The notes under the pieces were generated by a model. The model searched no databases and was not told where the DNA came from. It was given only the letters and a program-made list of their open reading frames with translations. Source: Pseudarthrobacter sp. BIM B-2242 (GTDB taxonomy: Bacteria > Actinomycetota > Actinomycetes > Actinomycetales > Micrococcaceae). From it: DNA of 64,000 bases. Of the stretch, positions 631 through 16,448 are shown piece by piece. The position numbers and the translations under genes were made by a program. Within the stretch, counting starts at the first letter, position 1. Each line of letters begins with the position of its first letter. Location: contig NZ_CP061721.1 of assembly GCF_014764445.1 (NCBI RefSeq), positions 992,001-1,056,000 on the forward strand, given 5' to 3'.

Positions 631-914
631 AGTTCTCCTTCATTTTGTGTTGATCACACCTTATCGTCCAGGTAAGTAGACCGAGCCTTGGGGTCACGGC
701 AAGTATGGGTGGCTGTGCCTGCGGCTAGTCCGAAGGATGCAACGGTCCGGCATATGCTTTGACGGCTCGCGCCCGCCCGCTATCTGCCGGACAACATAAA
801 CGCCATAACCTGCAAGCCCTATAAGCCCCGTCGCTTCCGGCGGGTTGATTCGTCCCGGGAGGCAGCTGCCGCTACAGTTTGAAGTCAGAGTTGTTCGTGA
901 GTAGGAGATCGTCA

Positions 915-1688
915 TTGGGGCCGTTCGATGACCGCGATATTGTCAGTGGCCATGTGCCCGGCGGCACGAACACTAGCCACACGATTGCCATCGGACACCT
1001 GACTTCACTTCTCTCTGCAGTGCCCAAGGCGTCTGGCCTGGCCGATTACGAAATGGCCGCCGTCGAGCACAACGTGCTCGGACGGGCTACAACGGAGGGC
1101 CGCCGGCGGACCTTCCGCTATTTGCGCGAACTGTACCTTCTCGATCCCAACCGCATAATGTTCCGGGCAATGCGTGACCTGTGGGACGAAGATGAGAAGG
1201 CACAGCCTCTCTTAGCTGGTTTGTCGGCCATGGCGCGAGACAGCGTTTTCCGGGCGTCTGCTTCGGGTCTCCTCGCGTTCGATGAGGGAGCGCTCGTGAC
1301 GGCTGAAATGCTCACCGGACTTGTAGAAGCCGCGTTTCCTCATGCATATAACGAAGGTACAGCGGCCAAGATTGGTCGGAACACTGCATCGTCATGGACG
1401 CAGACAGGGCATCTCCACGGCCGGGCTTCAAAAACTCGCCGGCAAGTGGAGCCGCGCCCAGCGGCGCTGGCGTTCGCGCTCCTCCTTGGCCACTTGCAGG
1501 GAGCCCGTGGGCCGTCCCTATACGACACTCAGTGGACAGCGTTCTTCGATGCGGACGTGCGCGAAATCGAGGCCATGGCCGGAGTCGCCGGCCAGCGTGG
1601 GTATATTGAGCTACGATCCGGGGGCGGGATTGTCGAGATCGGGTTCCGGCACCTTCTGAGACCCATGGAGGATCTTGCAAATGAGTGA
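915..1688 (+). CDS. brxA: BREX protein BrxA (DUF1819 family)
   Basis: This is the first gene of the BREX operon. The start chosen is TTG 915, because AGGAG at 903-907 lies 7 nt upstream. An in-frame TTG at 879 would add 12 residues but has no ribosome binding site. The protein is about 257 aa. It is mostly helical, with an LGRATTEGRRRTFRYLRELY-like segment near the N-terminus that fits the DUF1819 winged-helix fold of BrxA, a small DNA-binding BREX component. Identification rests mainly on position: it directly precedes brxB, brxC, pglX, pglZ and brxL in type 1 order. It ends inside the start of brxB (8-bp ATGAGTGA overlap), so the two are translationally coupled. The 285 bp upstream, shared with the divergent DUF262 gene, should hold the operon promoter. 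I could not pick out convincing -35/-10 boxes. Confidence 0.75.
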   Translation: MGPFDDRDIVSGHVPGGTNTSHTIAIGHLTSLLSAVPKASGLADYEMAAVEHNVLGRATTEGRRRTFRYLRELYLLDPNRIMFRAMRDLWDEDEKAQPLLAGLSAMARDSVFRASASGLLAFDEGALVTAEMLTGLVEAAFPHAYNEGTAAKIGRNTASSWTQTGHLHGRASKTRRQVEPRPAALAFALLLGHLQGARGPSLYDTQWTAFFDADVREIEAMAGVAGQRGYIELRSGGGIVEIGFRHLLRPMEDLANE

Positions 1689-2238
1689 CATCGACGCCCT
1701 TGTGGGCGCGTACGAACGATTCGTGGCTCTGCCGTGGTCGCGAAACCTCGCACCTGCACAGCGCGTTTGGATGGTCGTCTACCCTCCGAACGACGAGCGT
1801 CGATTGAGGGCGCGGATCGCAGCGTTTGCTGTTGCCACAGCCAAGGCAAAGAAAACCTGGTCGGTGGCCGATGTGACCAACAGTTTTGGAGACTGGATCG
1901 GGCGAAACCCATACAGGGAAACGTACTTCAAGAGCCCTGACAAGCTGTCGGCTGCTGCGCTTCGGGACTTTGAAAGGGACCTCGTTGTCCAAGTGCGCTC
2001 ATCATTGGATGGTGCCGCCAACGATAGCGACGGGGTAGTCGCCGTCCTCGGCGTGGGATCTTTGTTCCCCTTTACAAAGGTCAGCAAGTTCATCGAAGAT
2101 CTTGCCCCCGAGGCGGCAGGGCGTCTGGTTGTCTTTTTCCCCGGTGAACGCGACGGCTCCAACTACCGACTGCTCGAAGCCAGAGATGGCTGGAATTACC
2201 TCGCCACACCAATCACTGCCACAGAGGACACGTTGTGA
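1681..2238 (+). CDS. brxB: BREX protein BrxB (DUF1788 family)
   Basis: This 185-aa protein starts at ATG 1681, with GGAGG at 1667-1671. A TTG two codons upstream is also possible. DUF1788 proteins are small soluble BREX components always found between brxA and brxC. The biochemical role of BrxB is not well settled. The central segment ending VVAVLGVGSLFPFTKVSKF, and the C-terminal LVVFFPGERDGSNYRLLEA followed by WNYLATPI, fit the family, in which a strand-rich core ends in an FPG-type turn. It overlaps brxA by 8 bp upstream and brxC by 1 bp downstream (TGATG), so expression should be coupled. Family assignment comes from length, the FPGxxxGxxYxLL pattern and the invariant neighbourhood. Confidence 0.8.
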   Translation: MSDIDALVGAYERFVALPWSRNLAPAQRVWMVVYPPNDERRLRARIAAFAVATAKAKKTWSVADVTNSFGDWIGRNPYRETYFKSPDKLSAAALRDFERDLVVQVRSSLDGAANDSDGVVAVLGVGSLFPFTKVSKFIEDLAPEAAGRLVVFFPGERDGSNYRLLEARDGWNYLATPITATEDTL

Positions 2239-5200
2239 TGCTGAACAAAGAGATTTTCGTCGAGGACCCAACCAAGAAGAGCATCCCCAATCTTGGGGTG
2301 GCGAAAGTTGGGGAACCCACTGACGACGCCGGCTGGGCCGTGCTGGAGTACGAGCTGAAGAGCTTCGTTTGCGAGGGCGCATACGCGCAAGGCTTAGACC
2401 GCATCTTATCCTCATACGTAGGGCAGGCAGGATCCTCACAGCCGGCAGCATGGGTCAGCGGGTTCTACGGAAGCGGAAAATCGCATCTGGTGAGGGTTCT
2501 GGAGTACCTTTGGCGAGATCTGGAGCTAGCGGACGGGTCGACGGCGCGAGGGTTGGTCCGCACGCCCCAACCTGTAACTGACGTTTTGCGCGAGCTCAGT
2601 ACTATTGGGAGCCGTAACGGGGGTCTCTGGTCAGCGGCGGGCACTCTCGGTGCGGGAGCCGGTTCTGTGCGCCTCGGGTTTCTGTCAATCATTCTTGGCG
2701 CCGCCGGCCTTCCGACGGACCTGGCGCCGGCCCGCTGTGTGATGTGGCTTCAAGATGAGGGCTTATTTGAAACGGTCCAGGCGGACATCGCAAACCGAGG
2801 ACTGGACTGGGAGATGGTCCTCGAAAATATGTACGTCTCGGAGCTGGGTGAGGCGATCCTGGCTGCGAAGCCGGGGTGGGCAGCCAGCCCCGACATGGCC
2901 AGGGAACAGATCCACAATCAGTTCCCGCAGCCGGAAGATATCTCCCTGTCAGAGACCATCAAGACCGTAGAACATGTGCTTCGCCAGGTGTCGGACACGG
3001 TGGGTAAGCTGCCGTGTGCCCTCGTTGTTCTTGACGAAATGCAGCAGTTCATCAACGAGGACCCAGACCGTGCCCAGCAGGTCCAGTTGCTCGTAGAAGC
3101 GTGCTCAAGCGGTTTTGACGGTCTCCTCATGATTGTTGCCACGGGACAGGCCGCTCTCCAGACTACTGCCGTCCTTCAGAAGCTGATCGACCGTTTCGCC
3201 ATTCAAGTGCAGCTCTCCGACACCGACGTCGACGCCGTTATCCGGGAGGTCGTTTTGCGGAAGCGGCCTGAAAGTGTGCCCGCGCTGGAATTGGTCCTCG
3301 AGAAGCAGGCAGGTGAGATTGACAGGCAGCTGGGCGGTGCTGTCATTGCGCCATCGGCTTCCGACGAAAAATACCTTATCCCTGACTACCCCTTGCTGCC
3401 GTCCCGTCGCCGCTTCTGGGAGCACGTCCTCCGTTCGGTTGACAAGGCGGGCAAGGCGGGCCAGCTCCGTTCCCAGTTGCGTGTTGTGCATGAAGCGAGC
3501 AGAGTTGTGGCGGACTCTCCGGTCGGCACGGTTGTGCCTGCAGACTTCATTTACGATGAGAAGTCTGCTGACATGCTCCAGACTGGCGTGCTGCTTCGTG
3601 AGATCGAGCAGCTCATCAAGGGGGAGCGTTCGCAGGGGCCCGAAGGAGAGCTTCGGAGCCGTGTCCTGGCTCTTGTATTCCTGATTTCGCAGCTCTCCCG
3701 GGAAGGCTTTGCAGACACAGGCGTCCGGGCCACTGAGCAGCACATCGCCGATCTCCTGGTGGATGATCTGTCCGGCGCCGGACCTCGTTTACGTGCCGAA
3801 GTTCCAAAGGTTCTCGAGCAGCTTCATGCCGAATCCAAGCTCCTGAAAGTTGATGAGGAGTACTTCCTGCAGACACAGGCAGGACAGGAATGGGCAAAGG
3901 ACTTCCGTAACCGCAGGGCTTCTTTCCTGAGTGACTCGACCCGCGTTTCACACGCGCGGGACAGCGCCTTCCGAGACGCAATGACGCGAGTTGTCCCCCG
4001 GTCACGGCAACACGGCCTCAGTAAGACCCCACGAAACGTTGAAAATAGTTTCAGCGACGTAGAGCCGAAGGTTGACGTCAGCATTCCGGTCTGGGTCCGC
4101 ACAGGTTGGGATTTGGCAGAAAAACAGTTTACTGACCTGGCTAGCTCGGGAAGCACGGACTCGCCCCTCATCTTTGTTTACCTACCCAAGGTCGACGCAG
4201 ACGCCTTGGCCGGTGCCTTGGCGGACTTGGCAGCAGCAGAGGAAACGTTGGCAACCAGGCCGCGTCCGAATACGGACGAGGGTGTATCCGCCCTCAAAGC
4301 CATGGAGTCCACCCGAGAGATGGCTCGACAGAAGGTAGCCGGGCACGTTTCAGATGTTCTTCGTCAGTCGACCGTTGCACAGTCCGGAGGTAATCGAATT
4401 GCAGAATCGGACCTAAGTAAGGCTCTGGCAACCGCTGCAGATCGATCCATTGACCGTCTTTACCCCAAGTTCCGGGAAGGTGACCATACAGGCTGGGCAA
4501 CTGTATGGGCACGAGCGGTGGAAGGCAACGAAAACTGTTTGGAAGCTGTTAATCACAAGGGGCCAACTGCGTCGCACCCAGTCTGCAAAGCAATACTTTC
4601 CGCTGTCGGGCCTGCGGGAACATCCGGAAACGATCTCCGGAAAAAGTTTGAATCCCCAGAGTACGGCTGGCCGCGCGACGCAGTACATGCGGGCCTCGCG
4701 GCGCTCGTACTGGCTACCGAGCTGAACGCTGAGGAAAACGGTCTCCCGGTCTCCGCGCGACAGCTGAAGCCAAATGCCATCGGTAAGCTGATTTTCCGCC
4801 GCGAAACAAAGGTCGTCCCGCTCGGCGTAAGGCTTGCCGTACAGCAGGTGCTCACTGAGTCCGGAATTGCCGTGGAGAGGAACGAAGAGGCGGCCGCGTG
4901 CGGGTTGCTCTTACAGCGACTTAGTGACCTTGCCGGTGCCGCAGGTGGTGCCCCACCGCTGCCGGCGCCGCCGTCGACGGAGTTTCTGGACCCGCTGAAG
5001 GGTCTGAAGGGAAACGAATTGATTTCATCGGTGCACGACCACCGTGAAGCGATCCGGACTGCCGTAGTGGAATGGCGGACTGCATCAACGCTCAAGCAGG
5101 ACAGGTTAGCCAATTTTTCCAAAGCACAGCGCCTAGTTGCCCATTTGCCCGGTGACGGGGAGCACATAGCGGATCAGTTGCGTTCAGTTCAGGATAACCG

Positions 5201-5672
5201 GCAGCTGCTTCAGTCACCTGATCCCGTCGCGCCCATCATCCTCGCGGCAGCCGAGGTCCTGCGCACTGCGCTGAACGCCCAATTGTCCCGTTACAATCAG
5301 GCCGTTGCGGAGGCGCTAGCGCATTTAGCGGGCGATGACAGTTGGGGTGCCATGAGCGGTGGCCAACAGGAAGAACTTTTATCGAAGTATGAATTGGCGC
5401 TGGTGGTAACGCCTGCGCTAGGAACGGCAGATCAGGTATTGGCTGCTTTGGAAAGCCGCCCCGTGAGCTCGTGGAATGACCGCATAGATGCAGTTGACGC
5501 CCAGCTGGGCCGGTTGCGCGAGGCCGCCGCCAGGCTTTTGGAACCCACCGCATTCAAGATTATTCCGCCCAATGCGACGCTGAAGTCTGAACTTGAGGTC
5601 GAGGAATACATTGATCGACTTCGCAATCAGATGTTGGATGAGCTCCAGCAGCACAAGTCACTCATCGTCTAG
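2238..5672 (+). CDS. brxC: BREX ATPase BrxC
   Basis: BrxC is the large P-loop ATPase of BREX (usually about 1,200 aa; 1,144 aa here). It is needed for phage exclusion and, in studied systems, for methylation as part of the PglX assembly. The start is ATG 2238, overlapping the brxB stop by one base; GTG 2235 is an alternative. Walker A is GFYGSGKSH at residues 75-83. Walker B is ALVVLDEMQQF with D265-E266. A long helical C-terminal half follows, including the coiled-coil-like segment AALADLAAAEETLATR. The stop is 11 nt before pglX, whose ribosome binding site is AGGGAG at 5671-5676. No frameshift or missing catalytic residue was seen. Confidence 0.93.
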   Translation: MLNKEIFVEDPTKKSIPNLGVAKVGEPTDDAGWAVLEYELKSFVCEGAYAQGLDRILSSYVGQAGSSQPAAWVSGFYGSGKSHLVRVLEYLWRDLELADGSTARGLVRTPQPVTDVLRELSTIGSRNGGLWSAAGTLGAGAGSVRLGFLSIILGAAGLPTDLAPARCVMWLQDEGLFETVQADIANRGLDWEMVLENMYVSELGEAILAAKPGWAASPDMAREQIHNQFPQPEDISLSETIKTVEHVLRQVSDTVGKLPCALVVLDEMQQFINEDPDRAQQVQLLVEACSSGFDGLLMIVATGQAALQTTAVLQKLIDRFAIQVQLSDTDVDAVIREVVLRKRPESVPALELVLEKQAGEIDRQLGGAVIAPSASDEKYLIPDYPLLPSRRRFWEHVLRSVDKAGKAGQLRSQLRVVHEASRVVADSPVGTVVPADFIYDEKSADMLQTGVLLREIEQLIKGERSQGPEGELRSRVLALVFLISQLSREGFADTGVRATEQHIADLLVDDLSGAGPRLRAEVPKVLEQLHAESKLLKVDEEYFLQTQAGQEWAKDFRNRRASFLSDSTRVSHARDSAFRDAMTRVVPRSRQHGLSKTPRNVENSFSDVEPKVDVSIPVWVRTGWDLAEKQFTDLASSGSTDSPLIFVYLPKVDADALAGALADLAAAEETLATRPRPNTDEGVSALKAMESTREMARQKVAGHVSDVLRQSTVAQSGGNRIAESDLSKALATAADRSIDRLYPKFREGDHTGWATVWARAVEGNENCLEAVNHKGPTASHPVCKAILSAVGPAGTSGNDLRKKFESPEYGWPRDAVHAGLAALVLATELNAEENGLPVSARQLKPNAIGKLIFRRETKVVPLGVRLAVQQVLTESGIAVERNEEAAACGLLLQRLSDLAGAAGGAPPLPAPPSTEFLDPLKGLKGNELISSVHDHREAIRTAVVEWRTASTLKQDRLANFSKAQRLVAHLPGDGEHIADQLRSVQDNRQLLQSPDPVAPIILAAAEVLRTALNAQLSRYNQAVAEALAHLAGDDSWGAMSGGQQEELLSKYELALVVTPALGTADQVLAALESRPVSSWNDRIDAVDAQLGRLREAAARLLEPTAFKIIPPNATLKSELEVEEYIDRLRNQMLDELQQHKSLIV

Positions 5673-5683
5673 GGAGTAAACAC

Positions 5684-7083
5684 ATGTCGGTGTTGTCGGG
5701 TGTTTTGCGGAAGTTGCTTGAGCGTGCGGTGGTTGATGGTCGGGTGGTGGCTGAGGGTGGTGCTGCTGTTGCGTTGACGCGTTTGGGTGTGGGGTTGCGT
5801 GATGCGCCGGGGCATTTGAGTTTGGAGGAGCGGGCGCTTCGGAATGGTTTGCGGGCGCGGGCGCGTCAGCTGGGGGATCGTTTGGAGCTTTCGGGTGATC
5901 CTGGTGATGTGTGGGTGGCGTCGCCGTTGCTGGTGGGTGAGGTTGCGTATGAGCAGTGGCACCGGTTCCTGTTTGCGCGGTTTCTGGAGGTTAACGCCCT
6001 GTTGCGGCATCCGGAGTTCGGGGTTCCGGTTTCTTTGGAGGATTGCCAGGAGCTGGCCGCGGGTTTGGGGGAACCGGATGGTTGGTCGGTGGCGGCGCGT
6101 TTTGCGGCGGAGATCCTGCCGGGGATTTTCAAGCCGTCGGATCCTGCGGTGAAGGTCGGGCTGGCGCGGGAGGATCTGCTTGCGTTGGAGCGTGCAGTGA
6201 CGGCCCTCCCGGCGGAGGTGTTTACGGCTGAGGATTCGCTGGGGTGGGTGTACCAATTCTGGCAGTCCAAGGCCAAGGAGGCGGTGAACACTTCGGGCCG
6301 CAAGATCGGCGGTGCGGATCTGTCGCCGGTGACGCAGCTGTTCACCGAGGATTACATGGTGCGGTTCCTGCTGGAGAACTCCCTGGGTGCGTGGTGGGCG
6401 GGCCGGTATCCGGAGTCGCCTCTTCTGTCCGCGTTTGATTTCCTGAGGTTTGCGGAGGACGGTACTCCGGCGGCGGGGACGTTTGAGGGCTGGCCGGAGA
6501 CGGTTGCGGAGGTGACGGTGATGGATCCGTGCTGCGGGTCCGGGCATTTCCTGGTCGGGGCGTTCGGGATGTTGTGGCGGATGCGGGCCGAGGAGGAGGG
6601 TCTGTCTCCGGCGGCGGCACAGGACGCGGTGCTGGCTGAGAATCTGTTCGGGCTGGAGCTGGATCCGCGCTGCACTCAGATTGCGATGTTTGCGCTGGCT
6701 TTGGAGGCATGGAAGCAGGGCGGCTTCCGGAAGTTGCCGGTGCCGCAGGTGGCGTGTTCTGGGATTCCAGCGAAGGCGCCGTTGGCGGACTGGACGAAAC
6801 TCGCCGAGGGCGATTACCAGCTTGAGGCTGCGCTGACCCGGCTGCACACGTTGTTCGCGGACGCGGACACCCTGGGTTCGCTCATCGATCCGGTCCGGGC
6901 CTCCGAGCAGGCCGGGCTGGAATCCGTGGAATGGGCGGACATTGCACCGCTGCTGGACAAGGCCCTGACTTCGGAGGCTGCCTCCAGCGGTGATCCTGCG
7001 ACGGAGGTGTTTGGTGAGGCCGCTGCGGGGATCGCCCGCGCCGCCGATTACCTCAGCCGGAAGTACACCCTGGTCGCCACCAA
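5684..7083 (+). repeat. Direct repeat unit 1, 1,400 bp (5' part of pglX copy 1)
   Basis: Bases 5684-7083 match 8872-10271 at a constant offset of 3,188 bp. All stretches I compared were identical, and the translations are identical over 466 residues. The match begins at the A of the start codon, since the upstream bases of the two genes differ. It ends inside the Asn codon of the NPPY motif (AAT versus AAC). Confidence 0.9.
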
Positions 7084-8872
7084 TCCCCCCTACCTAGTGC
7101 GGCAGAGCCAAAACGAACCCTTGCGAGCCCATTGCGCGACCAATTTCCCTGATAGCAAAGAGGATTTGGCGACCACGATGCTGGAACGCATTAACAACAT
7201 GCTTCAGGTGCGGGGATCCTCGGTAGCAGTCAGTCCTCAAAATTGGCTTTTCCTAGGTACATTCGAGAAATTTCGAAAGCTTCTCTTAGGCGGCGTCAAG
7301 TGGAACTTTGACGCCAGGTTAGGTGAAGGAGCGTTCGGGGGTATCAGCGGACACGTAGTAAAGGTACACCTATCCGGTTGGACAACAGAACGTCCCGGAG
7401 GGGACGCCATATTCTCAACGATTGATTGCTCCACCTTTCGGGGCCCCGAGGCCAAGTCCGAGGCCCTTAAAGGCAAACTTGAACCGGTGATGCAGGTCTC
7501 TCAACTAAACAACCCGCAGTCCCGTATAACGTTTAGAGACACGTCGTCTATGCCGCTGCTCGGCGACTATGGTGTATCCCTGAAGGGAATTACAAGCGGC
7601 GACGACCCTCGGTGGCGGAGGGAAATGTGGGAAGTTGATCTCAAGGACGGGCAGTGGACTTTTCTCCAAGGTACGACGAGTTTCGGCCCACCTTATAGCG
7701 GCCGTCAGTCGGTCATGTCCAAGCGCCTTACTGTTGTCCCTACTCCTCCCGGGTCGTACATACGAGGTCACGAATCTTGGGGGCGGAGCGGGGTAGCTAT
7801 AAACCTAATGAACAGCCTGAACGTTGCCCCGTACCAAGGAGACAAGTTCGATACTAATGTCGCCGTCTTCCTTCCGGGCCGCGATGAGGATTTGGGAGCA
7901 GTCTGGGCGTTCCTATCTTCTGCGGATTTTTCGAGAGAAGTCAGGGCGATCGACCCGAAACTAAGCATTCAGCCAGGTACCATCCCCAACGTCCCCTTCG
8001 ATGTTGATTATTGGCGGGGTGTTGCTGCTGTGGAGTTTCCGGAGGGTTTGCCGGAGCCGTTTTCGGATGATGCGACGCAGTGGTTGTTCAGGGGTGTTCC
8101 GGCGGGTGCGCAGCAGCCGTTGCAGGTAGCTGTTGCCCGGCTGCTGGGCTTTTCGTGGCCTGATCAGGAGCCGGATTCCGTTGATGCCCTGGTGGATGGG
8201 GATGGGATTGTGTGTCTGCCGGCTGTGTCCGGTGAGCAGTCGGCGGCGGAGCGGGTGCGTTCCGTGCTGGCGGCCTCGCATGGGGGCCAGTGGTCGAATG
8301 CGCGTCTGGACGAGCTGCTGGTCGAAGCCGGCGGGAAGCCCGGGGATCTGGCCGGGTGGCTGGCTGATGTGTTTTTCAAGGATCACTGCAAGGTCTTTTC
8401 GAACCGCCCGTTTATTTGGCATGTCTGGGACGGGCGCCGGGACGGGTTCTCTGCCTTGGTGAATTATCACAAGCTGGACCGCACGACGCTGGAGAAGCTG
8501 ACGTACCGGTCCCTTGGTTGGTGGATTGACCGGCAGCGGGCTGATGCTGCTGCCGGTGCGGCGGGGGCGGAAGCCCGGCTGGTTGCGGCGATGACGTTGC
8601 AGGAGAAGCTGAAGCTGATCCTCGCTGGCGAGCCACCGTATGACATTTATGTGCGGTGGAAGTCGCTGGCGGAGCAGCCGGTTGGCTGGGACCCGGACCT
8701 GAACGACGGCGTGCGGTTGAACATCCGCCCGTTCGTGGAGGCCGGCGTGCTGCGCTCAAAGTTCACCGTCCACTGGAAGAAGGACCGCGGTACGAATCCC
8801 GACGGCACCGAACGCCACAACGACCTCCACTTGACGAACGAAGAAAAGCGAAAGGCTCGAGGTCTCAGCTGA
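5684..8872 (+). CDS. pglX: BREX adenine-specific DNA methyltransferase PglX, copy 1
   Basis: PglX is the BREX N6-adenine methyltransferase. It marks host DNA at one strand of an asymmetric motif and sets the specificity of the system. The protein is 1,062 aa. SAM-binding motif I is DPCCGSGHF at residues 281-289 and catalytic motif IV is NPPY at 467-470. The segment from about residue 471 to 770 is the presumed target-recognition domain (TRD) and shares no visible similarity with the same segment of the next gene. The rest, from VPFDVDYW to the end, is about 90% identical to copy 2. The first 1,400 bp appear identical to copy 2. The backbone has an unusual G+T-rich coding strand, whereas the TRD uses C- and A-ending codons like the neighbours, so the gene is a compositional mosaic. 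The stop overlaps the next ATG by one base. Confidence 0.93.
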   Translation: MSVLSGVLRKLLERAVVDGRVVAEGGAAVALTRLGVGLRDAPGHLSLEERALRNGLRARARQLGDRLELSGDPGDVWVASPLLVGEVAYEQWHRFLFARFLEVNALLRHPEFGVPVSLEDCQELAAGLGEPDGWSVAARFAAEILPGIFKPSDPAVKVGLAREDLLALERAVTALPAEVFTAEDSLGWVYQFWQSKAKEAVNTSGRKIGGADLSPVTQLFTEDYMVRFLLENSLGAWWAGRYPESPLLSAFDFLRFAEDGTPAAGTFEGWPETVAEVTVMDPCCGSGHFLVGAFGMLWRMRAEEEGLSPAAAQDAVLAENLFGLELDPRCTQIAMFALALEAWKQGGFRKLPVPQVACSGIPAKAPLADWTKLAEGDYQLEAALTRLHTLFADADTLGSLIDPVRASEQAGLESVEWADIAPLLDKALTSEAASSGDPATEVFGEAAAGIARAADYLSRKYTLVATNPPYLVRQSQNEPLRAHCATNFPDSKEDLATTMLERINNMLQVRGSSVAVSPQNWLFLGTFEKFRKLLLGGVKWNFDARLGEGAFGGISGHVVKVHLSGWTTERPGGDAIFSTIDCSTFRGPEAKSEALKGKLEPVMQVSQLNNPQSRITFRDTSSMPLLGDYGVSLKGITSGDDPRWRREMWEVDLKDGQWTFLQGTTSFGPPYSGRQSVMSKRLTVVPTPPGSYIRGHESWGRSGVAINLMNSLNVAPYQGDKFDTNVAVFLPGRDEDLGAVWAFLSSADFSREVRAIDPKLSIQPGTIPNVPFDVDYWRGVAAVEFPEGLPEPFSDDATQWLFRGVPAGAQQPLQVAVARLLGFSWPDQEPDSVDALVDGDGIVCLPAVSGEQSAAERVRSVLAASHGGQWSNARLDELLVEAGGKPGDLAGWLADVFFKDHCKVFSNRPFIWHVWDGRRDGFSALVNYHKLDRTTLEKLTYRSLGWWIDRQRADAAAGAAGAEARLVAAMTLQEKLKLILAGEPPYDIYVRWKSLAEQPVGWDPDLNDGVRLNIRPFVEAGVLRSKFTVHWKKDRGTNPDGTERHNDLHLTNEEKRKARGLS

Positions 8873-10271
8873 TGTCGGTGTTGTCGGGTGTTTTGCGGAA
8901 GTTGCTTGAGCGTGCGGTGGTTGATGGTCGGGTGGTGGCTGAGGGTGGTGCTGCTGTTGCGTTGACGCGTTTGGGTGTGGGGTTGCGTGATGCGCCGGGG
9001 CATTTGAGTTTGGAGGAGCGGGCGCTTCGGAATGGTTTGCGGGCGCGGGCGCGTCAGCTGGGGGATCGTTTGGAGCTTTCGGGTGATCCTGGTGATGTGT
9101 GGGTGGCGTCGCCGTTGCTGGTGGGTGAGGTTGCGTATGAGCAGTGGCACCGGTTCCTGTTTGCGCGGTTTCTGGAGGTTAACGCCCTGTTGCGGCATCC
9201 GGAGTTCGGGGTTCCGGTTTCTTTGGAGGATTGCCAGGAGCTGGCCGCGGGTTTGGGGGAACCGGATGGTTGGTCGGTGGCGGCGCGTTTTGCGGCGGAG
9301 ATCCTGCCGGGGATTTTCAAGCCGTCGGATCCTGCGGTGAAGGTCGGGCTGGCGCGGGAGGATCTGCTTGCGTTGGAGCGTGCAGTGACGGCCCTCCCGG
9401 CGGAGGTGTTTACGGCTGAGGATTCGCTGGGGTGGGTGTACCAATTCTGGCAGTCCAAGGCCAAGGAGGCGGTGAACACTTCGGGCCGCAAGATCGGCGG
9501 TGCGGATCTGTCGCCGGTGACGCAGCTGTTCACCGAGGATTACATGGTGCGGTTCCTGCTGGAGAACTCCCTGGGTGCGTGGTGGGCGGGCCGGTATCCG
9601 GAGTCGCCTCTTCTGTCCGCGTTTGATTTCCTGAGGTTTGCGGAGGACGGTACTCCGGCGGCGGGGACGTTTGAGGGCTGGCCGGAGACGGTTGCGGAGG
9701 TGACGGTGATGGATCCGTGCTGCGGGTCCGGGCATTTCCTGGTCGGGGCGTTCGGGATGTTGTGGCGGATGCGGGCCGAGGAGGAGGGTCTGTCTCCGGC
9801 GGCGGCACAGGACGCGGTGCTGGCTGAGAATCTGTTCGGGCTGGAGCTGGATCCGCGCTGCACTCAGATTGCGATGTTTGCGCTGGCTTTGGAGGCATGG
9901 AAGCAGGGCGGCTTCCGGAAGTTGCCGGTGCCGCAGGTGGCGTGTTCTGGGATTCCAGCGAAGGCGCCGTTGGCGGACTGGACGAAACTCGCCGAGGGCG
10001 ATTACCAGCTTGAGGCTGCGCTGACCCGGCTGCACACGTTGTTCGCGGACGCGGACACCCTGGGTTCGCTCATCGATCCGGTCCGGGCCTCCGAGCAGGC
10101 CGGGCTGGAATCCGTGGAATGGGCGGACATTGCACCGCTGCTGGACAAGGCCCTGACTTCGGAGGCTGCCTCCAGCGGTGATCCTGCGACGGAGGTGTTT
10201 GGTGAGGCCGCTGCGGGGATCGCCCGCGCCGCCGATTACCTCAGCCGGAAGTACACCCTGGTCGCCACCAA
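8872..10271 (+). repeat. Direct repeat unit 2, 1,400 bp (5' part of pglX copy 2)
   Basis: This is the second unit of the pglX direct repeat. Homologous recombination between the units would remove exactly 3,188 bp. It would leave one in-frame pglX carrying the copy 2 TRD behind the strong AGGGAG ribosome binding site of copy 1. Confidence 0.9.
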
Positions 10272-12111
10272 CCCGCCCTACCTCTCCCGGAACAAACAAA
10301 CTCCAACACTTGCCCAGTTCGGGGCGGACAATGCGCCGGCCGCAGCAGCGGATCTAGCAACGATTTTTGTCGATAGAATGACACGGCTTTCCCGTGGAGG
10401 GGCTTTGGTGTGCGTTTCCCCGACCAACTGGTTAACACAAGGCGCGTACAAGGCGTTCCGGACGAGCTTTCTTCCGGTAAACACATTGGCCTTTATCGTT
10501 TGGCTCGGGAGCGGTGCCTTTACTGCCGTGACCGGGCAGCAGGTAAATGTTGTTCTTGTTGTGGTATCTGCACGCCTACGGGTGCGGCAACCGGTGATCG
10601 GTATCGACGCCCGCGAGGGTACCTTGGCCACAAAGATCGTCGCCATGCGGAGCGCGCCGACGATGATTTTGCCTGACGTAAACCCGCAGTCCCCTAGTCC
10701 CTCGAATCCGGATTTACGAGTTGTTCCCCACACGGTGGTAACGCATCTACCACTCATGTCTGAATTTGCCGAAGCGAAAGCGGGCTTATTTGCCGGTGAT
10801 TCCCTCCGCTTCGACCGCAATCTTTGGGAGGTCCCCGAACTCGGGACGTCTTGGGAAAGACTGCAGGGAACGGTGAATGCGTCTGTTGATTACGGAGGCC
10901 GCGCTCGAATTGTCTTGTGGGAAAGGGAAGCTGGCCACATGGCCCGATTGGCCGAGAGTGTCCGGCATCTGAACCACGCCGCGCAAAACTGGCGACGAGG
11001 AAAGCCGTTCTGGGGCCACAAAGGAGTGGCCTTCAGCCTAATGGGTGATCTCCCTTCCACCCTCTACTCTGGGGACCGCTACGACATCAACTGCTGCGCC
11101 GTCGTTCCGAGGACAAAAGAAGATCTGCCTGCTGTTTGGGCCTTTGCGCGCAGTGGCGATTGGGCACGCGCCATTCGCCTTATAGAGGGTTCTTTGAAGG
11201 TTCCGCCCCACACCTTGCTAAAGGTGCCGTTTGATGTGGATCATTGGCGGCGTGTGGCGGAGGAGGAATTTCCGGAGGGTTTGCCGGAGCCGTTTTCGGA
11301 TGATGCGACGCAGTGGTTGTTCAAAGGTGCCCCGGCGGGTGCTCGGCAGCCGTTGCAGGTTGCTGTGGCCCGGCTGCTGGGGTTTTCCTGGCCGGATCAG
11401 GAACCTGACGCCGTCGATCCGCTGGTGGATGGGGACGGGATTGTGTGTCTGCCGGCCGTGTCGGGTGAGCAGTCCGCGGCGGAGCGGGTGCGGGCCGTCC
11501 TGGCCGCCTCGTACGGGGACGACTGGTCGAATGCGCGTTTGGATGAGCTGTTGGTCGAGGCCGGAGGGAAGCCGGGAGACCTGGCGGGGTGGTTGGCAGA
11601 CGTATTCTTCAAAGACCATTGCAAGGTCTTTTCCAACCGTCCCTTTCTCTGGCATGTCTGGGACGGGCGGCGGGACGGCTTCTCGGCGCTGGTGAACTAC
11701 CACAAGCTGGATAGGTCGACGCTGGAGAAGCTGACCTACCGGACACTTGGCTGGTGGATCGACCGGCAGAGGGCCGATGCTGCCGCCGCGGCCGCGGGGG
11801 CAGAAGCCCGCTTGGCGGCGGCCACGACCCTGCAGGAGAAGTTGAAGCTGATCCTCACCGGTGAGCCTCCGTACGACATTTATGTGCGGTGGAAGGCGCT
11901 GGGGGAGCAGCCGGTCGGCTGGGATCCGGATCTGGACGACGGGGTGCGGCTGAACATCCGGCCGTTCGTTGAGGCCGGTGTGCTGCGTTCGAAGTTCACG
12001 GTTCACTGGAAGAAGGACCGCGGCACGAATCCCGACGGCACCGAACGCCACAACGACCTCCACTTCACAACCATCCAGAAGAATGATGCACGAGGAACCC
12101 ACAACTCATGA
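8872..12111 (+). CDS. pglX: BREX adenine-specific DNA methyltransferase PglX, copy 2 (different specificity domain)
   Basis: This second, full-length PglX is 1,079 aa. The ATG at 8872 is chosen because the protein then begins exactly like copy 1 (MSVLSGVLRKLL). The frame stays open upstream to 8656 but that part overlaps copy 1 and is not credible. Motif I (281-289) and NPPY (467-470) are intact and identical to copy 1. After NPPYL the sequences separate completely (SRNKQ versus VRQSQ) for about 300 residues, then realign at VPFDVDHW and stay about 90% identical to near the C-terminus. The natural reading is two enzymes with the same catalytic body and different TRDs. No own ribosome binding site is visible, so translation probably depends on termination of copy 1 (TGATG). 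The stop overlaps pglZ (ATGA). Confidence 0.92.
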   Translation: MSVLSGVLRKLLERAVVDGRVVAEGGAAVALTRLGVGLRDAPGHLSLEERALRNGLRARARQLGDRLELSGDPGDVWVASPLLVGEVAYEQWHRFLFARFLEVNALLRHPEFGVPVSLEDCQELAAGLGEPDGWSVAARFAAEILPGIFKPSDPAVKVGLAREDLLALERAVTALPAEVFTAEDSLGWVYQFWQSKAKEAVNTSGRKIGGADLSPVTQLFTEDYMVRFLLENSLGAWWAGRYPESPLLSAFDFLRFAEDGTPAAGTFEGWPETVAEVTVMDPCCGSGHFLVGAFGMLWRMRAEEEGLSPAAAQDAVLAENLFGLELDPRCTQIAMFALALEAWKQGGFRKLPVPQVACSGIPAKAPLADWTKLAEGDYQLEAALTRLHTLFADADTLGSLIDPVRASEQAGLESVEWADIAPLLDKALTSEAASSGDPATEVFGEAAAGIARAADYLSRKYTLVATNPPYLSRNKQTPTLAQFGADNAPAAAADLATIFVDRMTRLSRGGALVCVSPTNWLTQGAYKAFRTSFLPVNTLAFIVWLGSGAFTAVTGQQVNVVLVVVSARLRVRQPVIGIDAREGTLATKIVAMRSAPTMILPDVNPQSPSPSNPDLRVVPHTVVTHLPLMSEFAEAKAGLFAGDSLRFDRNLWEVPELGTSWERLQGTVNASVDYGGRARIVLWEREAGHMARLAESVRHLNHAAQNWRRGKPFWGHKGVAFSLMGDLPSTLYSGDRYDINCCAVVPRTKEDLPAVWAFARSGDWARAIRLIEGSLKVPPHTLLKVPFDVDHWRRVAEEEFPEGLPEPFSDDATQWLFKGAPAGARQPLQVAVARLLGFSWPDQEPDAVDPLVDGDGIVCLPAVSGEQSAAERVRAVLAASYGDDWSNARLDELLVEAGGKPGDLAGWLADVFFKDHCKVFSNRPFLWHVWDGRRDGFSALVNYHKLDRSTLEKLTYRTLGWWIDRQRADAAAAAAGAEARLAAATTLQEKLKLILTGEPPYDIYVRWKALGEQPVGWDPDLDDGVRLNIRPFVEAGVLRSKFTVHWKKDRGTNPDGTERHNDLHFTTIQKNDARGTHNS

Positions 12112-14396
12112 CAGTGTCCGGTAAATCCGTTTTGGACGCCATTGCAACTTCGCTCCTGGATGCAAGCCGCTACAACAGCGACGACAAAACCAGCCCCGTG
12201 GCCGTTTTGTGGCCAGACCCAGAGCGTCTTTGGGAACCGTTGGTGGCGAAACTCGGTGGGATTCTCAAGACCGCCACACTGGGGGATTTCGATCAATCCA
12301 AGTCGGCCGGACCAGCAATCTGGATTCGCTCATTGCTTGCCAATTTTGATCAGTCGTCTTCGGACACTCCCCTCGTGGTCTATCTCCCAGGCGTTTCCCG
12401 CGGCGACCTTCGGGCAGTTGAAAGCAGTTCGGCAGCCCTTCGACCTCTGGCAGAACTGCAGTTTCGCTCTGTGTGGTGGCTCCAGTCGAACCAGTCGCCA
12501 TGGACTCCAGGTGCTTTCCTTCGAAGCCCCGACGGTCTCAAACTTGACGTTGCCCGAAACGACGAGACAACGAAGAACCTCGCCCTGGTGCTATCTGAAC
12601 TCAGCGACTCGGCAGTTGAAGATCTCCGCAACGTCGGTCGCTTGGACGCGTCCTTCTTCTCCTCCCTATTAGTGGCCGACGAGACCAAGGCACTTCTGAC
12701 CTGGCTCAACGAGCCGGATGCCACAAAGATGGCGCTAAGCGGCAACGAGTGGGCAGCTTTTGTGTCCCGATCCAAGTCGACCTTCGGCGTGGATCCTGAT
12801 GCCGTGGGCGCACTGACTATTGCAGCGAAGCTGGGGCAGAGGCAAGGCCCGTGGAAGAAGGCCTGGGATAGGTTCGCTGAGGCTCCTCACAGCTACCCCA
12901 AGATCCCAGACCAACTGCGTAGGGCGAAACCTTCTGACCAGCTCTTTTCCGATCTCCCCGACTCATGGCCGCAGGACAATGAGGAGGCTGAACGGGAGGT
13001 CGAGGCCGCACTCGTTGCGACGAGCGGAGGTACGCCGGCAGAGGCCCGGTCGCGGGTTTTGGCACTCGAGCAAGAGCACGCTGGCCGAAGGCTGACTGTT
13101 TGGTCGGTGCTCGGGACTGCCCCGCTCGCCGGTGCGCTGGAACACCTCAGCATTGTGGCCCATAAGGCCCACAGTCTTCCGACCGCAGACAGCCCCGCCG
13201 GTTTTGCGAGTTGGTACGCGGAAGAGGGATGGCAGGTCGACGGGGCCGCGGTGGCGGCCCTGGCCTCGGTCACAGACCAGTATTCCCGAGGTGCCGTGGG
13301 GGACGCTCTCCGGGCGATCTATCTGCCATGGCTTGATGACGTGGCTCGAAGCTTCCAGAAGGTTGTTACGCAGCACGGTCAGTTGGCCGATGTTGGGCTG
13401 GATCTCGAGAAGGGCGACTGTGTCGTCTTCGTTGATGGCCTTCGTTACGACGTCGCCGAGTCTGTGCGGCGGGCCCTTGCTGAGCGCGGCGCAAACGCCG
13501 AAATTCGCACCAGATTCGCTGCTTTCCCCAGCATGACAAGCTCGGGCAAACCTGCCGTTGCGCCCCTTGGGCAAAAGCTCGCTGGAGGGAACGAGCTGGC
13601 ACCGAGCGCGGGCGAACGCCCGGTGGACGCGGGGGTGTTGCGCTCTTTGTTAGGGCAGGCGGCGGTGCAAGTACTGCAGCGTGATGAGCTCGGCGACCCG
13701 AAAGGCTACGGCTGGACGGAAACCGGAGACCTGGACGCGACTGGTCACAAACTTGAGCTTAAGCTGGTTGACCGCATACCCCAAGAAGTAGCCGACATCG
13801 CCAGCCGGGTCCGTCAGCTCCTGGACGGGGGATGGGCGCGGGTACAGATCGTGACCGATCACGGATGGTTGCTCATGCCGGGCCAACTCCCCAAAATGGA
13901 ACTCCCGCAACACCTCACGATCGTGCGCAAATCGCGTTGCGCGCGGCTAGCGGATGGGGCCGGGGCGGTGGACCAGCCAACATTTCCCTGGACTTGGGAT
14001 TCCGACGTCCGGATAGCCATTCCGCACGGAATAGCGGCCTTCCAAGCCGGCTGCATCTACGAACACGGTGGTGTGAGCCCTCAGGAAAGTATCACTCCGC
14101 ACATCATTGTCAGCGGGACCACAGCCCAATCTCACGCACGAATTGAAGGAATCAAGTGGGTGGGCCTCAGGTGCCGGATTGACTACGTTGATGCTCCCAT
14201 TGGCGCCGTTCTGGACGTGAGGAAAGAGCCGGGGAACTCGTCGTCGTCCGTTACGACCGCCAAGGTCATTTCTGGTTCGGGTGAAGATCGCTTGCTAGTG
14301 CCTGACGACTCCAAGGAGGGCGAGATGGTTTTCGTCGTCCTGTTGTCCGAACAAGGAGAGATTATGGCCCAAGTGTCGACAAGAGTTGGGGAGTAA
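12108..14396 (+). CDS. pglZ: BREX alkaline-phosphatase-fold protein PglZ
   Basis: PglZ (762 aa; typical 700-850) is the hallmark BREX protein. It carries a metal-dependent alkaline-phosphatase-superfamily domain, and some homologues show nuclease or phosphodiesterase activity. The N-terminal third is variable. The PglZ core starts near residue 435: VFVDGLRYD (D443, D448), then FPSMTSSGKPAV with the nucleophile-region serine/threonine, VTDHGWLLMPG (D584, H585) and YEHGGVSPQESITPH. These fit the metal-ligand blocks of the fold. The start codon overlaps the pglX copy 2 stop (ATGA), and the stop is 3 nt before brxL. In type 1 systems PglZ works with BrxB, BrxC and PglX. Nothing unusual was noted apart from the two methyltransferases it must serve. 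Confidence 0.93.
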   Translation: MTVSGKSVLDAIATSLLDASRYNSDDKTSPVAVLWPDPERLWEPLVAKLGGILKTATLGDFDQSKSAGPAIWIRSLLANFDQSSSDTPLVVYLPGVSRGDLRAVESSSAALRPLAELQFRSVWWLQSNQSPWTPGAFLRSPDGLKLDVARNDETTKNLALVLSELSDSAVEDLRNVGRLDASFFSSLLVADETKALLTWLNEPDATKMALSGNEWAAFVSRSKSTFGVDPDAVGALTIAAKLGQRQGPWKKAWDRFAEAPHSYPKIPDQLRRAKPSDQLFSDLPDSWPQDNEEAEREVEAALVATSGGTPAEARSRVLALEQEHAGRRLTVWSVLGTAPLAGALEHLSIVAHKAHSLPTADSPAGFASWYAEEGWQVDGAAVAALASVTDQYSRGAVGDALRAIYLPWLDDVARSFQKVVTQHGQLADVGLDLEKGDCVVFVDGLRYDVAESVRRALAERGANAEIRTRFAAFPSMTSSGKPAVAPLGQKLAGGNELAPSAGERPVDAGVLRSLLGQAAVQVLQRDELGDPKGYGWTETGDLDATGHKLELKLVDRIPQEVADIASRVRQLLDGGWARVQIVTDHGWLLMPGQLPKMELPQHLTIVRKSRCARLADGAGAVDQPTFPWTWDSDVRIAIPHGIAAFQAGCIYEHGGVSPQESITPHIIVSGTTAQSHARIEGIKWVGLRCRIDYVDAPIGAVLDVRKEPGNSSSSVTTAKVISGSGEDRLLVPDDSKEGEMVFVVLLSEQGEIMAQVSTRVGE

Positions 14397-14399
14397 CCG

Positions 14400-16448
14400 G
14401 TGGCAGAGCTCGACGAACTCGACCGAATTACTGCGGATGCCTATGAGGGCTTTGTCGTGCGCAAAGACTTGGCACAAAAGTTCAAGGGAGCTTATCCGAT
14501 TCCAACTTACGTCGGGGAGTTCCTCCTAGGACGTTTCTGTGCAACAACAGACCCGGTCGAGATCCAGGAAGGTTTGGAAGTCGTCGAGCGGCTGCTTCGA
14601 GACCGGACCGTACGCGCTGGCGAAGAAGAGTTGTTCAAATCACGGGCCCGCGAAAAGGGCACCATAAAGATCATTGATCTCATCCAGGCCAGATTGGATT
14701 CCAAAGCCAACGTTTATCTGGCCACGCTGCCGAGCCTCCAGCTGAGCGATGTCCGGATCGAGGACTCCGTGGTGGCCGCGAACGAGCGCATGCTTACCGG
14801 TGGCTTCTACGCCGAAATTGACTTGGAATACGATGCCGCAATCGCCGGCGAGAGCTCGGGTCGGCCATTCGGAGTGACGAGCCTGCGTCCGATTCAGCTG
14901 TCTACGCGGTCTGCCTTGGATGATCTGGCGGAAAAGCGTGACAAGTTCACCACCGAGCAGTGGAAGCACATGCTGCTGAGAAGCGTCGGTTTTGAACCCG
15001 CCCGATTGACTGAGCGACAGCAAAATGTGCTTCTACTACGGATGGTCCCGTTCGTTGTCCGCAATCACAACATGGTAGAGCTTGGCCCCCGAGGTACTGG
15101 CAAGTCACACCTGTTCCAACAGGTCTCTCCCTACGCCCACCTCATCTCGGGCGGGAAGGCGACCGTGGCGCGGATGTTCGTCAATAACGCCACAGGTCAG
15201 CGTGGACTCGTAGCGCAGCATGACGTGGTTTGCTTCGATGAAGTGTCCGGCGTTTCCTTCGATCAGAAGGACGGCGTGAACATTATGAAGGGCTACATGG
15301 AGTCGGGGGAATTCAGTCGAGGCCGCGAAAGTATCCGCGCCGACGGCTGCATTGTCTTGGTAGGGAACTTCGATGTTGATGTCCAGCACCAACAGCGCGT
15401 CGGGCATCTCCTCTCTCCGCTGCCGCCGGAGATGCGAAACGACACGGCCTTCATGGATCGCATCCATGCTTTTCTACCTGGTTGGGACGTTCCAAAGCTC
15501 GATCCTTCATACTTCACCTCACATTTCGGTCTAGTCAGCGACTTCTTGTCCGAGTGCTGGACGCGACTGAGAACTCAGAGCCGAATGGCGAACATCCAGG
15601 GTCGCCTTCACTACGGCGACGCGCTCAGTGGACGAGACTTGACCGCCGTCAACAAGACGACGGACGGCCTACTGAAGCTCTTGTATCCGAACCACGACGC
15701 AGCTATACCGGACGTCGAACTCGAGTGGGCGGTCAAGCTGGCACTCGAATGCCGGCGCCGTGTGAAGGAGCAGCAGCGCCGCATCGGTGCAGCCGAATTC
15801 CGAAACACTCACTTCAGCTACCGTCTGGGCGAAGATGCTGTCGAGCAATTCGTCTCCACTCCGGAACTCCAAAGCCCTGACACGATCGGCTTAGACCCGT
15901 TGCCGCCCGGACAGATTTGGGCTGTGAGTCCTGGCGGTCCAGACGAGTATGCGGGTCTATACCGGGTTGACGTTACAGAAGCTCCGGGAAGTGGCGTCAA
16001 GATTGTGAACCGGCCAACGCCTCCGGCACTTCGCGAGAGCGTTCAAGTGGCCGAGCAAAACCTCATTGGGCACGCGCGTGAGCTGGTCGGGGACAGAACA
16101 CCCCGTGAACACGAGTTTTCGATTCAGGTGCGGGCCATGGACAATGCCAAATCCGGAGCTGCACTTGGACTGCCAGCCCTATTGGCCCTGTGTAGCTCAC
16201 TACTGCAGAAAAACGTTAGGGGAGGTCTCATCGCAGTGGGCAATCTAACTCTAGGCGGAGGCGTAGAGAATCTGCCGAACGCGGTTGCCTTGGCGGAGCT
16301 GGCGATGGAAAAGGGGGCGGAGACACTTCTACTGCCTGTTTCGGCCCGAAAACAGCTCTTCGATGTGAGCGATGACGTGGCCACGAAGATCTCGTTTCTC
16401 TTTTACTCCGATGCCAAGGACGCCCTGCTCAAGGCGCTGGCCGACTGA
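14400..16448 (+). CDS. brxL: BREX Lon-like AAA+ protein BrxL
   Basis: BrxL (682 aa) defines type 1 and type 4 BREX and is needed for phage exclusion but not for methylation. It starts at GTG 14400, after a GGGGAG site at the end of pglZ. The N-terminal half precedes a AAA+ module with Walker A GPRGTGKSH (229-237) and Walker B DVVCFDE (D280, E281). The C-terminal quarter is Lon-like: MDNAKSGAALGLPALLAL (S585), then NLTLGGGVENLPNAVALAE. In true Lon proteases the dyad is a Ser and a Lys. The Ser position fits, but I see no lysine at the expected GGVKEK-like position (it reads GGVEN), so peptidase activity is doubtful. Structural work on BrxL describes an MCM-like DNA-binding assembly. It is the last gene of the BREX operon, with 195 bp to the next gene. 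Confidence 0.93.
   Translation: MAELDELDRITADAYEGFVVRKDLAQKFKGAYPIPTYVGEFLLGRFCATTDPVEIQEGLEVVERLLRDRTVRAGEEELFKSRAREKGTIKIIDLIQARLDSKANVYLATLPSLQLSDVRIEDSVVAANERMLTGGFYAEIDLEYDAAIAGESSGRPFGVTSLRPIQLSTRSALDDLAEKRDKFTTEQWKHMLLRSVGFEPARLTERQQNVLLLRMVPFVVRNHNMVELGPRGTGKSHLFQQVSPYAHLISGGKATVARMFVNNATGQRGLVAQHDVVCFDEVSGVSFDQKDGVNIMKGYMESGEFSRGRESIRADGCIVLVGNFDVDVQHQQRVGHLLSPLPPEMRNDTAFMDRIHAFLPGWDVPKLDPSYFTSHFGLVSDFLSECWTRLRTQSRMANIQGRLHYGDALSGRDLTAVNKTTDGLLKLLYPNHDAAIPDVELEWAVKLALECRRRVKEQQRRIGAAEFRNTHFSYRLGEDAVEQFVSTPELQSPDTIGLDPLPPGQIWAVSPGGPDEYAGLYRVDVTEAPGSGVKIVNRPTPPALRESVQVAEQNLIGHARELVGDRTPREHEFSIQVRAMDNAKSGAALGLPALLALCSSLLQKNVRGGLIAVGNLTLGGGVENLPNAVALAELAMEKGAETLLLPVSARKQLFDVSDDVATKISFLFYSDAKDALLKALAD

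What the first reader, a model, noticed from the sequence alone, without database searches (positions are those of the whole stretch)
5684..12111. Tandem pglX genes with one shared catalytic body and two unrelated specificity domains in a type 1 BREX operon
Seen: two full-length, in-frame pglX genes share an apparently identical first 1,400 bp and carry intact DPxxGSGH and NPPY motifs. About 300 unrelated residues follow in each, then C-terminal parts about 90% identical in protein. Known: PglX sets BREX methylation and self/non-self specificity, and duplicated or rearranged pglX genes have been reported in some BREX loci. Inference: this host may methylate two motifs at once, or hold a reserve specificity. 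One PglZ/BrxC/BrxL set would have to serve two methyltransferases, which raises the question of whether one unmethylated motif alone triggers defence.
Basis: partly seen in the sequence, partly recalled or inferred. Interest (0 to 1): 0.88.

Follow-up and report, generated by a model that had tools for sequence, protein, structure and literature searches.

The report
Two-specificity BREX operon with twin pglX
A bacterium carries a phage-defence operon with two complete DNA-marking enzymes that share one body but have different DNA-reading parts, so a single defence machine may guard against phages at two different DNA words.

Summary
A complete type 1 BREX operon (brxA-B-C, pglX1, pglX2, pglZ, brxL) carries two full-length, overlapping, co-directional pglX genes. 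Their first 1,400 bp are identical; the middle ~300 residues are 29% and the C-parts 92% identical. One BrxC and one PglZ were found in the genome.

New here: (1) the swapped middle is a defined cassette, from just after the catalytic NPPY motif to the end of the TRD. It includes the loop aligned to the base-6 reader of E. coli BrxX, so it probably holds the whole specificity. (2) Exchange of this cassette is common in this PglX subfamily: 128 of 135 pairs with alike backbones have middles below 50% identity. (3) One more intact twin operon exists in a Bacteroidetes MAG, and a likely third in a metagenome. (4) N-parts were recently homogenised; C-parts are older (dS 0.67). No switch element was found.

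Best reading: two active methyltransferases sharing one BREX machine. That both methylate at once is untested. Duplicated pglX is on record, and L. paracasei Zhang has a two-methyltransferase BREX, so this is a new variant of a known kind.

The parts
879..1688 (+). brxA
   Evidence: PADLOC BrxA, E 1.3e-69; start codon as listed by the ORF listing (TTG), not verified
1675..2238 (+). brxB
   Evidence: PADLOC BrxB 4.2e-65, Pfam BrxB
2235..5672 (+). brxC, only match in the genome
   Evidence: PADLOC BrxC E 0, 1216.9 bits; single match in G000
5684..8872 (+). pglX1 (1062 aa)
   Evidence: PADLOC PglX 1242 bits; AF2 model best matches BrxX/PglX in PDB
8872..12111 (+). pglX2 (1079 aa); start codon overlaps the pglX1 stop (TGATG)
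   Evidence: PADLOC PglX 1227 bits; AF2 model best matches BrxX/PglX in PDB
5684..7083 (+). exact direct repeat, copy 1: NTD plus first half of MTase domain
8872..10271 (+). exact direct repeat, copy 2
6524..6547 (+). DPCCGSGH (SAM-binding motif) of PglX1
   Evidence: translation
9712..9735 (+). DPCCGSGH of PglX2
   Evidence: translation
7082..7093 (+). NPPY catalytic motif of PglX1 (residues 467-470)
10270..10281 (+). NPPY catalytic motif of PglX2 (residues 467-470)
7097..7990 (+). exchangeable specificity cassette 1 (residues 472-769): post-NPPY MTase half, hinge, TRD
   Evidence: only DNA match in the genome
10285..11223 (+). exchangeable specificity cassette 2 (residues 472-784)
   Evidence: no second copy in the window, rest of genome not searched with it
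7319..7363 (+). PglX1 loop aligned to E. coli BrxX 587-601 (reads base pair 6): LGEGAFGGISGHVVK
   Evidence: alignment, residues; function of the loop from PMC11842806 section 9
10504..10548 (+). PglX2 loop aligned to E. coli BrxX 587-601: LGSGAFTAVTGQQVN
   Evidence: alignment, residues
10966..10992 (+). HLNHAAQNW element in the TRD of PglX2; absent from PglX1
7991..8872 (+). conserved C-part of pglX1
   Evidence: 86% DNA identity to the pglX2 C-part over 840 nt, dS 0.67, dN 0.042
11224..12111 (+). conserved C-part of pglX2
12108..14396 (+). pglZ, only match in the genome
   Evidence: PADLOC PglZ 813 bits; single match in G000
14400..16448 (+). brxL
   Evidence: PADLOC BrxL 939 bits

Best explanation
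A type 1 BREX operon that encodes two complete methyltransferase/specificity factors served by one BrxA-BrxB-BrxC-PglZ-BrxL set. PglX1 and PglX2 have the same NTD and front half of the MTase domain and nearly the same CTD, the parts expected to dock to BrxB/C/Z. Each has its own specificity cassette (post-NPPY MTase half with the base-6 loop, plus TRD), so each should mark a different asymmetric 6-bp motif with N6-methyladenine, and each should sense its own motif when unmethylated. A phage would then have to lose both motifs to escape. The pair arose by exchange of the cassette through homologous recombination in the conserved flanks plus duplication, and the 5' parts were recently made identical by gene conversion. 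Shown: architecture, sequence divergence, recurrence of the cassette exchange, one BrxC and one PglZ match. Inferred: different motifs, simultaneous expression, shared complex, defence at either motif, gene conversion as the cause of the 5' identity.
For: Intact overlapping ORFs in one operon. PADLOC assigns 7 of 7 genes. One BrxC and one PglZ match in the genome. Middle 29% identical against N 100% and C 92%. In 201 PglX proteins collected without the search for PglX2-like middles, 128 of 135 pairs with N >=85% and C >=75% have middles <50% identical; the four Arthrobacter-like backbones (X1, X2, P0002, P0003) carry four different middles. Breakpoints lie at residues 463-476, around NPPYL, in 113 of 159 pairs and at residues 760-795 in 146 of 159 (my sums). 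The base-6 loop of E. coli BrxX (587-601, PMC11842806 section 9) falls inside the cassette and differs between X1 and X2. Nearly identical middles also sit on differing backbones, e.g. P0174/P0176 N 0.70, M 0.94, C 0.59. An intact twin operon of the same gene order exists in L035, and P0012/P0028 show N 1.00, M 0.27, C 0.92. dN/dS of the C-parts is 0.06 over 840 nt or 0.09 with the tail; 10 and 8 derived residues in X1 and X2 against P0002/P0003. Both models fit BrxX/PglX best.
Against: No expression or methylome data. In L. paracasei Zhang only one of two BREX methyltransferases accounts for 6mA (PMC10164179 passage), so a second PglX can be silent or regulatory. Low dN/dS may reflect history before the two genes met. 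Twin operons are rare: 1 intact among 80 related genome loci, of which 59 had at least 3.3 kb on both sides, and 0 of 19 viral-contig loci, several of them cut. At the residue aligned to E598, which touches base pair 6 in E. coli, 64 of 135 backbone pairs do not differ. The TRD itself was not aligned to E. coli BrxX by sequence (matches end near residue 605 of 9ewz), and parts of the PglX1 TRD model are below pLDDT 50.
Confidence: 0.62

Rival explanations
1. One PglX is active and the other is a silent or regulatory paralogue or a reservoir of a second specificity; recombination between the 1,400-bp repeats or the 3' parts changes which specificity is kept.
For: L. paracasei Zhang precedent (PMC10164179 passage). 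Direct repeats of 1,400 bp at 100% and 848 bp at 86% can recombine. Recent homogenisation suggests that the copies do recombine. Duplicated, distinct hsdS genes that switch specificity are known in type I RM (PMC7394358 abstract and discussion).
Against: Both copies are full length, in one operon, with start/stop overlap; storage copies of hsdS are usually truncated (recalled). Direct repeats give deletion, not reversible inversion (established knowledge). No inverted repeat of 30 bp or more in 3000-16000, no repeat tract in the two genes and no site-specific recombinase among the neighbours tested, which are only part of the surroundings.
Confidence: 0.25
2. Transient duplication: a freshly made tandem that will collapse to one pglX, without selected dual function.
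For: Twin operons are rare. Exact 5' identity makes deletion easy.
Against: The C-parts are old (dS 0.67) and L035 has a twin with N dS 1.09 and C dS 0.99, so such pairs are not always fresh copies; the divergence could, however, predate their meeting.
Confidence: 0.1
3. Assembly artefact that chained two alleles of a mixed culture.
For: An exact 1,400-bp repeat is the kind of place where assemblers err; reads were not available.
Against: The junction TGATG joins the two frames cleanly; middles and 3' parts are unique; complete genome in 2 contigs; an independent intact twin exists (L035).
Confidence: 0.03

Closest known systems
Type 1 BREX with single pglX (E. coli HS, Salmonella, Acinetobacter, E. 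fergusonii)
   Same: All six gene families in the canonical order; PglX with NTD, MTase domain, TRD, CTD; models match 9ewz and 8c45 best
   Different: Two pglX instead of one
BREX of Lacticaseibacillus paracasei (casei) Zhang, with a second methyltransferase
   Same: Two BREX methyltransferase genes in one system (PMC10164179 passages; Hui 2019 and 2022 seen only as references in other papers)
   Different: There only pglX accounts for 6mA. In L. [quoted passage not shown] Here both are full length and adjacent, with no integrase between them.
Duplicated or phase-variable pglX of Goldfarb et al. 2015
   Same: Duplications of pglX in BREX clusters are mentioned (via PMC11842806 discussion; original not held)
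   Different: No description of a shared body with two TRDs was seen in the passages read
Type I RM loci with duplicated, distinct hsdS (Atack et al. 2020, PMC7394358)
   Same: Works alike: one machine, several specificity modules, recombination in conserved flanks (abstract and discussion)
   Different: hsdS is a separate subunit and those loci switch by inverted repeats; here specificity is fused to the MTase, repeats are direct and both genes look active
Type IIL RM enzymes (MmeI)
   Same: MTase and TRD homologous (PMC11842806 discussion); MmeI among the structural matches
   Different: PglX has no nuclease domain and, in E. coli, needs BrxB/C/Z for methylation

Membership tests
Type 1 BREX | brxA, brxB, brxC, pglX, pglZ, brxL in one cluster | tested here: met
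   PADLOC, 7 of 7 genes
Type 1 BREX | single pglX | tested here: not met
   two pglX; usual but not defining, since duplications are on record
Type 1 BREX | host DNA carries N6mA at position 5 of an asymmetric 6-bp motif | not testable with these tools
   no methylome
PglX/BrxX | DPxxGSGH and NPPY motifs | tested here: met
   by my count on the alignment the Tyr of NPPY aligns with E. coli Y511, named
PglX/BrxX | overall fold like 9ewz/8c45 | tested here: met
   Foldseek best hits E 5.4e-41 and 5.9e-40, TM-scores by query 0.57-0.72 for the BrxX/PglX entries
Phase-variable pglX | invertible repeats, recombinase or repeat tract | tested here: not met
   0 inverted repeats of 30 bp or more in 3000-16000; one run of 6 C in pglX1 is the longest homopolymer, no SSR; IS21 and IS3 transposases but no site-specific recombinase among the neighbours tested
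L. paracasei-type second methyltransferase | second methyltransferase not needed for methylation | not testable with these tools
   needs deletion and methylome

The most novel reading that the evidence does not exclude
Heterospecific site pairing. BREX marks only one strand, and it has been proposed that self/non-self discrimination might need two BrxBCXZ complexes on oppositely oriented sites (PMC11842806 discussion). With two PglX on identical docking parts, a PglX1 complex could pair with a PglX2 complex, so that a motif-1 site facing a motif-2 site triggers defence. Twin pglX would then enlarge the set of productive site pairs rather than merely add a second system, and it would explain why N- and C-parts stay alike while the cassettes differ.
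Probability: 0.15. Interest if true: 0.88.

Novelty: new variant of a known kind. Interest (0 to 1): 0.62.

Why it matters
How BREX decides between methylating and attacking is open (PMC11842806 discussion). A natural operon with two specificities on one machine lets that be tested: are both motifs marked, does one unmethylated motif suffice, can two different sites cooperate? The cassette boundary found here (NPPY to end of TRD, taking the base-6 loop along) suggests that nature swaps the whole specificity unit and not the TRD alone. The authors of PMC11842806 report that three hybrids carrying only another system's loop lost defence.

Tried and rejected
Rejected: inverted-repeat or recombinase switch, phase-variable tract, other copies of cassette 1 in the genome (cassette 2 was searched in the window only). 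Idea that twins always pair a HLNHAAQNW-class TRD with another class: the window pair, P0012/P0028 and P0043/P0199 fit, but P0199 came only from a search with that class as query, and L035 and L014 do not fit, so it is not claimed.

Not counted as intact twins: L014 (second copy begins inside a PglZ start, next to an N), L019 (only a duplicated pglX 3' end), L068 (one gene in two ORFs). Genome surveys were poor in yield: 3 of 149 genomes with a match at E <= 1e-50, one of them the window's own and the other two partial or distant matches; 5 of 394, G000 among them; 5 of 395, G530 among them. The plasmid search gave 7 of 72,556 records with one place each.

P0012/P0028 and P0043/P0199 are placed on one contig each only because the listed contig lengths agree (31730; 19203); the DNA was not seen.

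Limits of the pair counts: they are not independent (104 distinct proteins in the 159 pairs). The proteins come from capped lists (best 120 of 7,992; best 80 of 557 loci). Of 245 listed proteins other than the window's own, those shorter than 950 aa were dropped (232 kept), and locus ORFs shorter than 900 aa. In one search I further dropped L062 (same protein as P0023) and the broken L014 copy. The breakpoint fit allowed residues 380-599 and 680-859 only; 6 of 159 fell on the lower limit. That 133 of 135 pairs differ in the base-6 loop is not independent of the low identity of the whole middle.

Full report
OBSERVATION. The window holds brxA 879-1688, brxB 1675-2238, brxC 2235-5672, pglX1 5684-8872, pglX2 8872-12111, pglZ 12108-14396 and brxL 14400-16448, all on the + strand and all named by PADLOC. 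pglX1 ends and pglX2 begins in TGATG; pglX2 and pglZ overlap as ATGA. Bases 5684-7083 and 8872-10271 are identical. The genome (G000, 4.78 Mb, 2 contigs, rated 100% complete) has two PglX matches, one PglZ match and one BrxC match. Close PglX relatives point to an Arthrobacter-like host: P0003 is from Arthrobacter globiformis, 76% identical overall. Among 149 genomes drawn as relatives, the window's own included, only two others had a match at E <= 1e-50, one a C-terminal piece with a stop and one a distant match of residues 162-570, so the system is probably acquired.

ANATOMY. PglX1 and PglX2 are 100% identical up to NPPYL, 29% over the middle and 92% over the C-part. Over 840 nt of the C-parts, 44% of synonymous sites differ (dS 0.67) with dN 0.042, ratio 0.06; with the tail included the ratio is 0.09. 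The N-parts have no difference over about 365 synonymous sites. The C-parts are therefore old and the N-parts were recently homogenised. GC3 is 0.59 and 0.61 in the two middles, 0.76-0.79 in the pglX backbone parts and 0.65-0.66 in brxC, pglZ and brxL, so it is the backbone rather than the middles that stands out from the operon. No inverted repeat of 30 bp or more, no repeat tract and, among the neighbours tested, no site-specific recombinase was found. AlphaFold models have mean pLDDT 81.6 and 84.0, with stretches below 50 in the PglX1 TRD, and both match E. coli BrxX and Salmonella PglX best.

THE EXCHANGED UNIT. Across 316 aligned PglX sequences, 189 pairs share N >=85% and C >=75%; 159 of them have middles below 50% and 25 at or above 80%. 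Part of that set was collected with the two middles as queries, so I repeated the count without those proteins: 201 sequences, 135 pairs, 128 below 50%, 5 between 50 and 80%, 2 at or above 80%. The five largest of 17 backbone clusters, with 17, 8, 8, 7 and 6 members, hold 14, 8, 8, 7 and 6 different middles; in two of the two-member clusters the middle is shared. The fitted 5' boundary is at residues 463-476 in 113 of 159 pairs and the 3' boundary at 760-795 in 146 of 159 (sums). Conversely, nearly the same middle occurs on differing backbones (P0174/P0176: 0.70, 0.94, 0.59; P0174/P0175: 0.80, 0.98, 0.60). In E. coli BrxX the TRD reads base pairs 1-4, and MTase loop 587-601 reads base pair 6 (PMC11842806 section 9). 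That loop aligns with PglX1 546-560 and PglX2 545-559, inside the cassette. The residue aligned to E598 is H in PglX1 and Q in PglX2; across the 135 pairs it differs in 71 and is the same in 64, and the loops as wholes differ in 133. This offers a reason why the cassette starts at NPPY and not at the TRD: it takes the base-6 reader along. That reason is inference from alignment.

OTHER TWINS. The 80 best loci of a scan of one genome for each of 84,980 species include L035 (Bacteroidetes MAG), with the same operon and two intact pglX between brxC and pglZ. Its N-parts are 82% and C-parts 80% identical in DNA, with dS 1.09 and 0.99 and dN/dS 0.07 and 0.10. L014 is ambiguous, L019 carries a duplicated pglX 3' end, and L068 is one split gene. 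59 of the 80 had at least 3.3 kb on both sides. Of 19 loci from viral contigs none had an intact twin.

MECHANISM. Published work, as read in PMC11842806 (sections 9 and 14), shows that BrxX both marks and senses the motif and works in a BrxBCXZ complex. The conserved NTD, front MTase half and CTD of both PglX should dock to the one BrxB/C/Z set, and the cassettes should give two motifs. I hold two active specificities to be most likely (0.62), a silent or reserve copy next (0.25). The L. paracasei Zhang case, where only one of two methyltransferases accounts for methylation (PMC10164179 passage), is the strongest warning.

NOVELTY. Duplication of pglX is on record (PMC11842806 discussion; the original was not held). 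I did not see a twin pglX with shared body and two TRDs, or the NPPY-to-TRD cassette, described in seven library searches (listings) or in the passages and sections read; subscription papers are mostly not held. Filed as a new variant of a known kind.

Noticed in passing
window 1-630 (- strand), continuing upstream (L092:16531-18630): A GmrSD-family type IV restriction gene (GmrSD_N, GmrSD_C, DUF5655) lies divergent to brxA; further upstream a DUF3427/PLD helicase and a SIR2_2 gene: a defence island.
   Followed up: partly
window 16644-18998, 20507-22812, 23988-24833: A UvrD-like helicase gene follows brxL, then an IS21 pair (istA/istB-like) and an IS3-like transposase (the names IS3 and istA are mine from the Pfam domains).
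   Followed up: no
window 10966-10992; P0002, P0028, P0121-P0217: A highly conserved HLNHAAQNW element marks one TRD class found on backbones of several phyla by source name; it is rare in this backbone set (2 of 119 proteins, 2 of 82 locus ORFs). Its role is unknown.
   Followed up: partly
L019:13331-15784: In a Chloroflexi MAG, AriA/AriB-like (PARIS) genes sit between pglX and pglZ, followed by an ORF holding a duplicated PglZ start and PglX end: repeats of the pglX-pglZ junction may be an insertion site for other defence genes.
   Followed up: partly
L003 (same genus) and L087/L091 (same class): A pglX 3' fragment with a stop in one congener, and a pglX split into two ORFs near model position 570 in another genome.
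   Followed up: no
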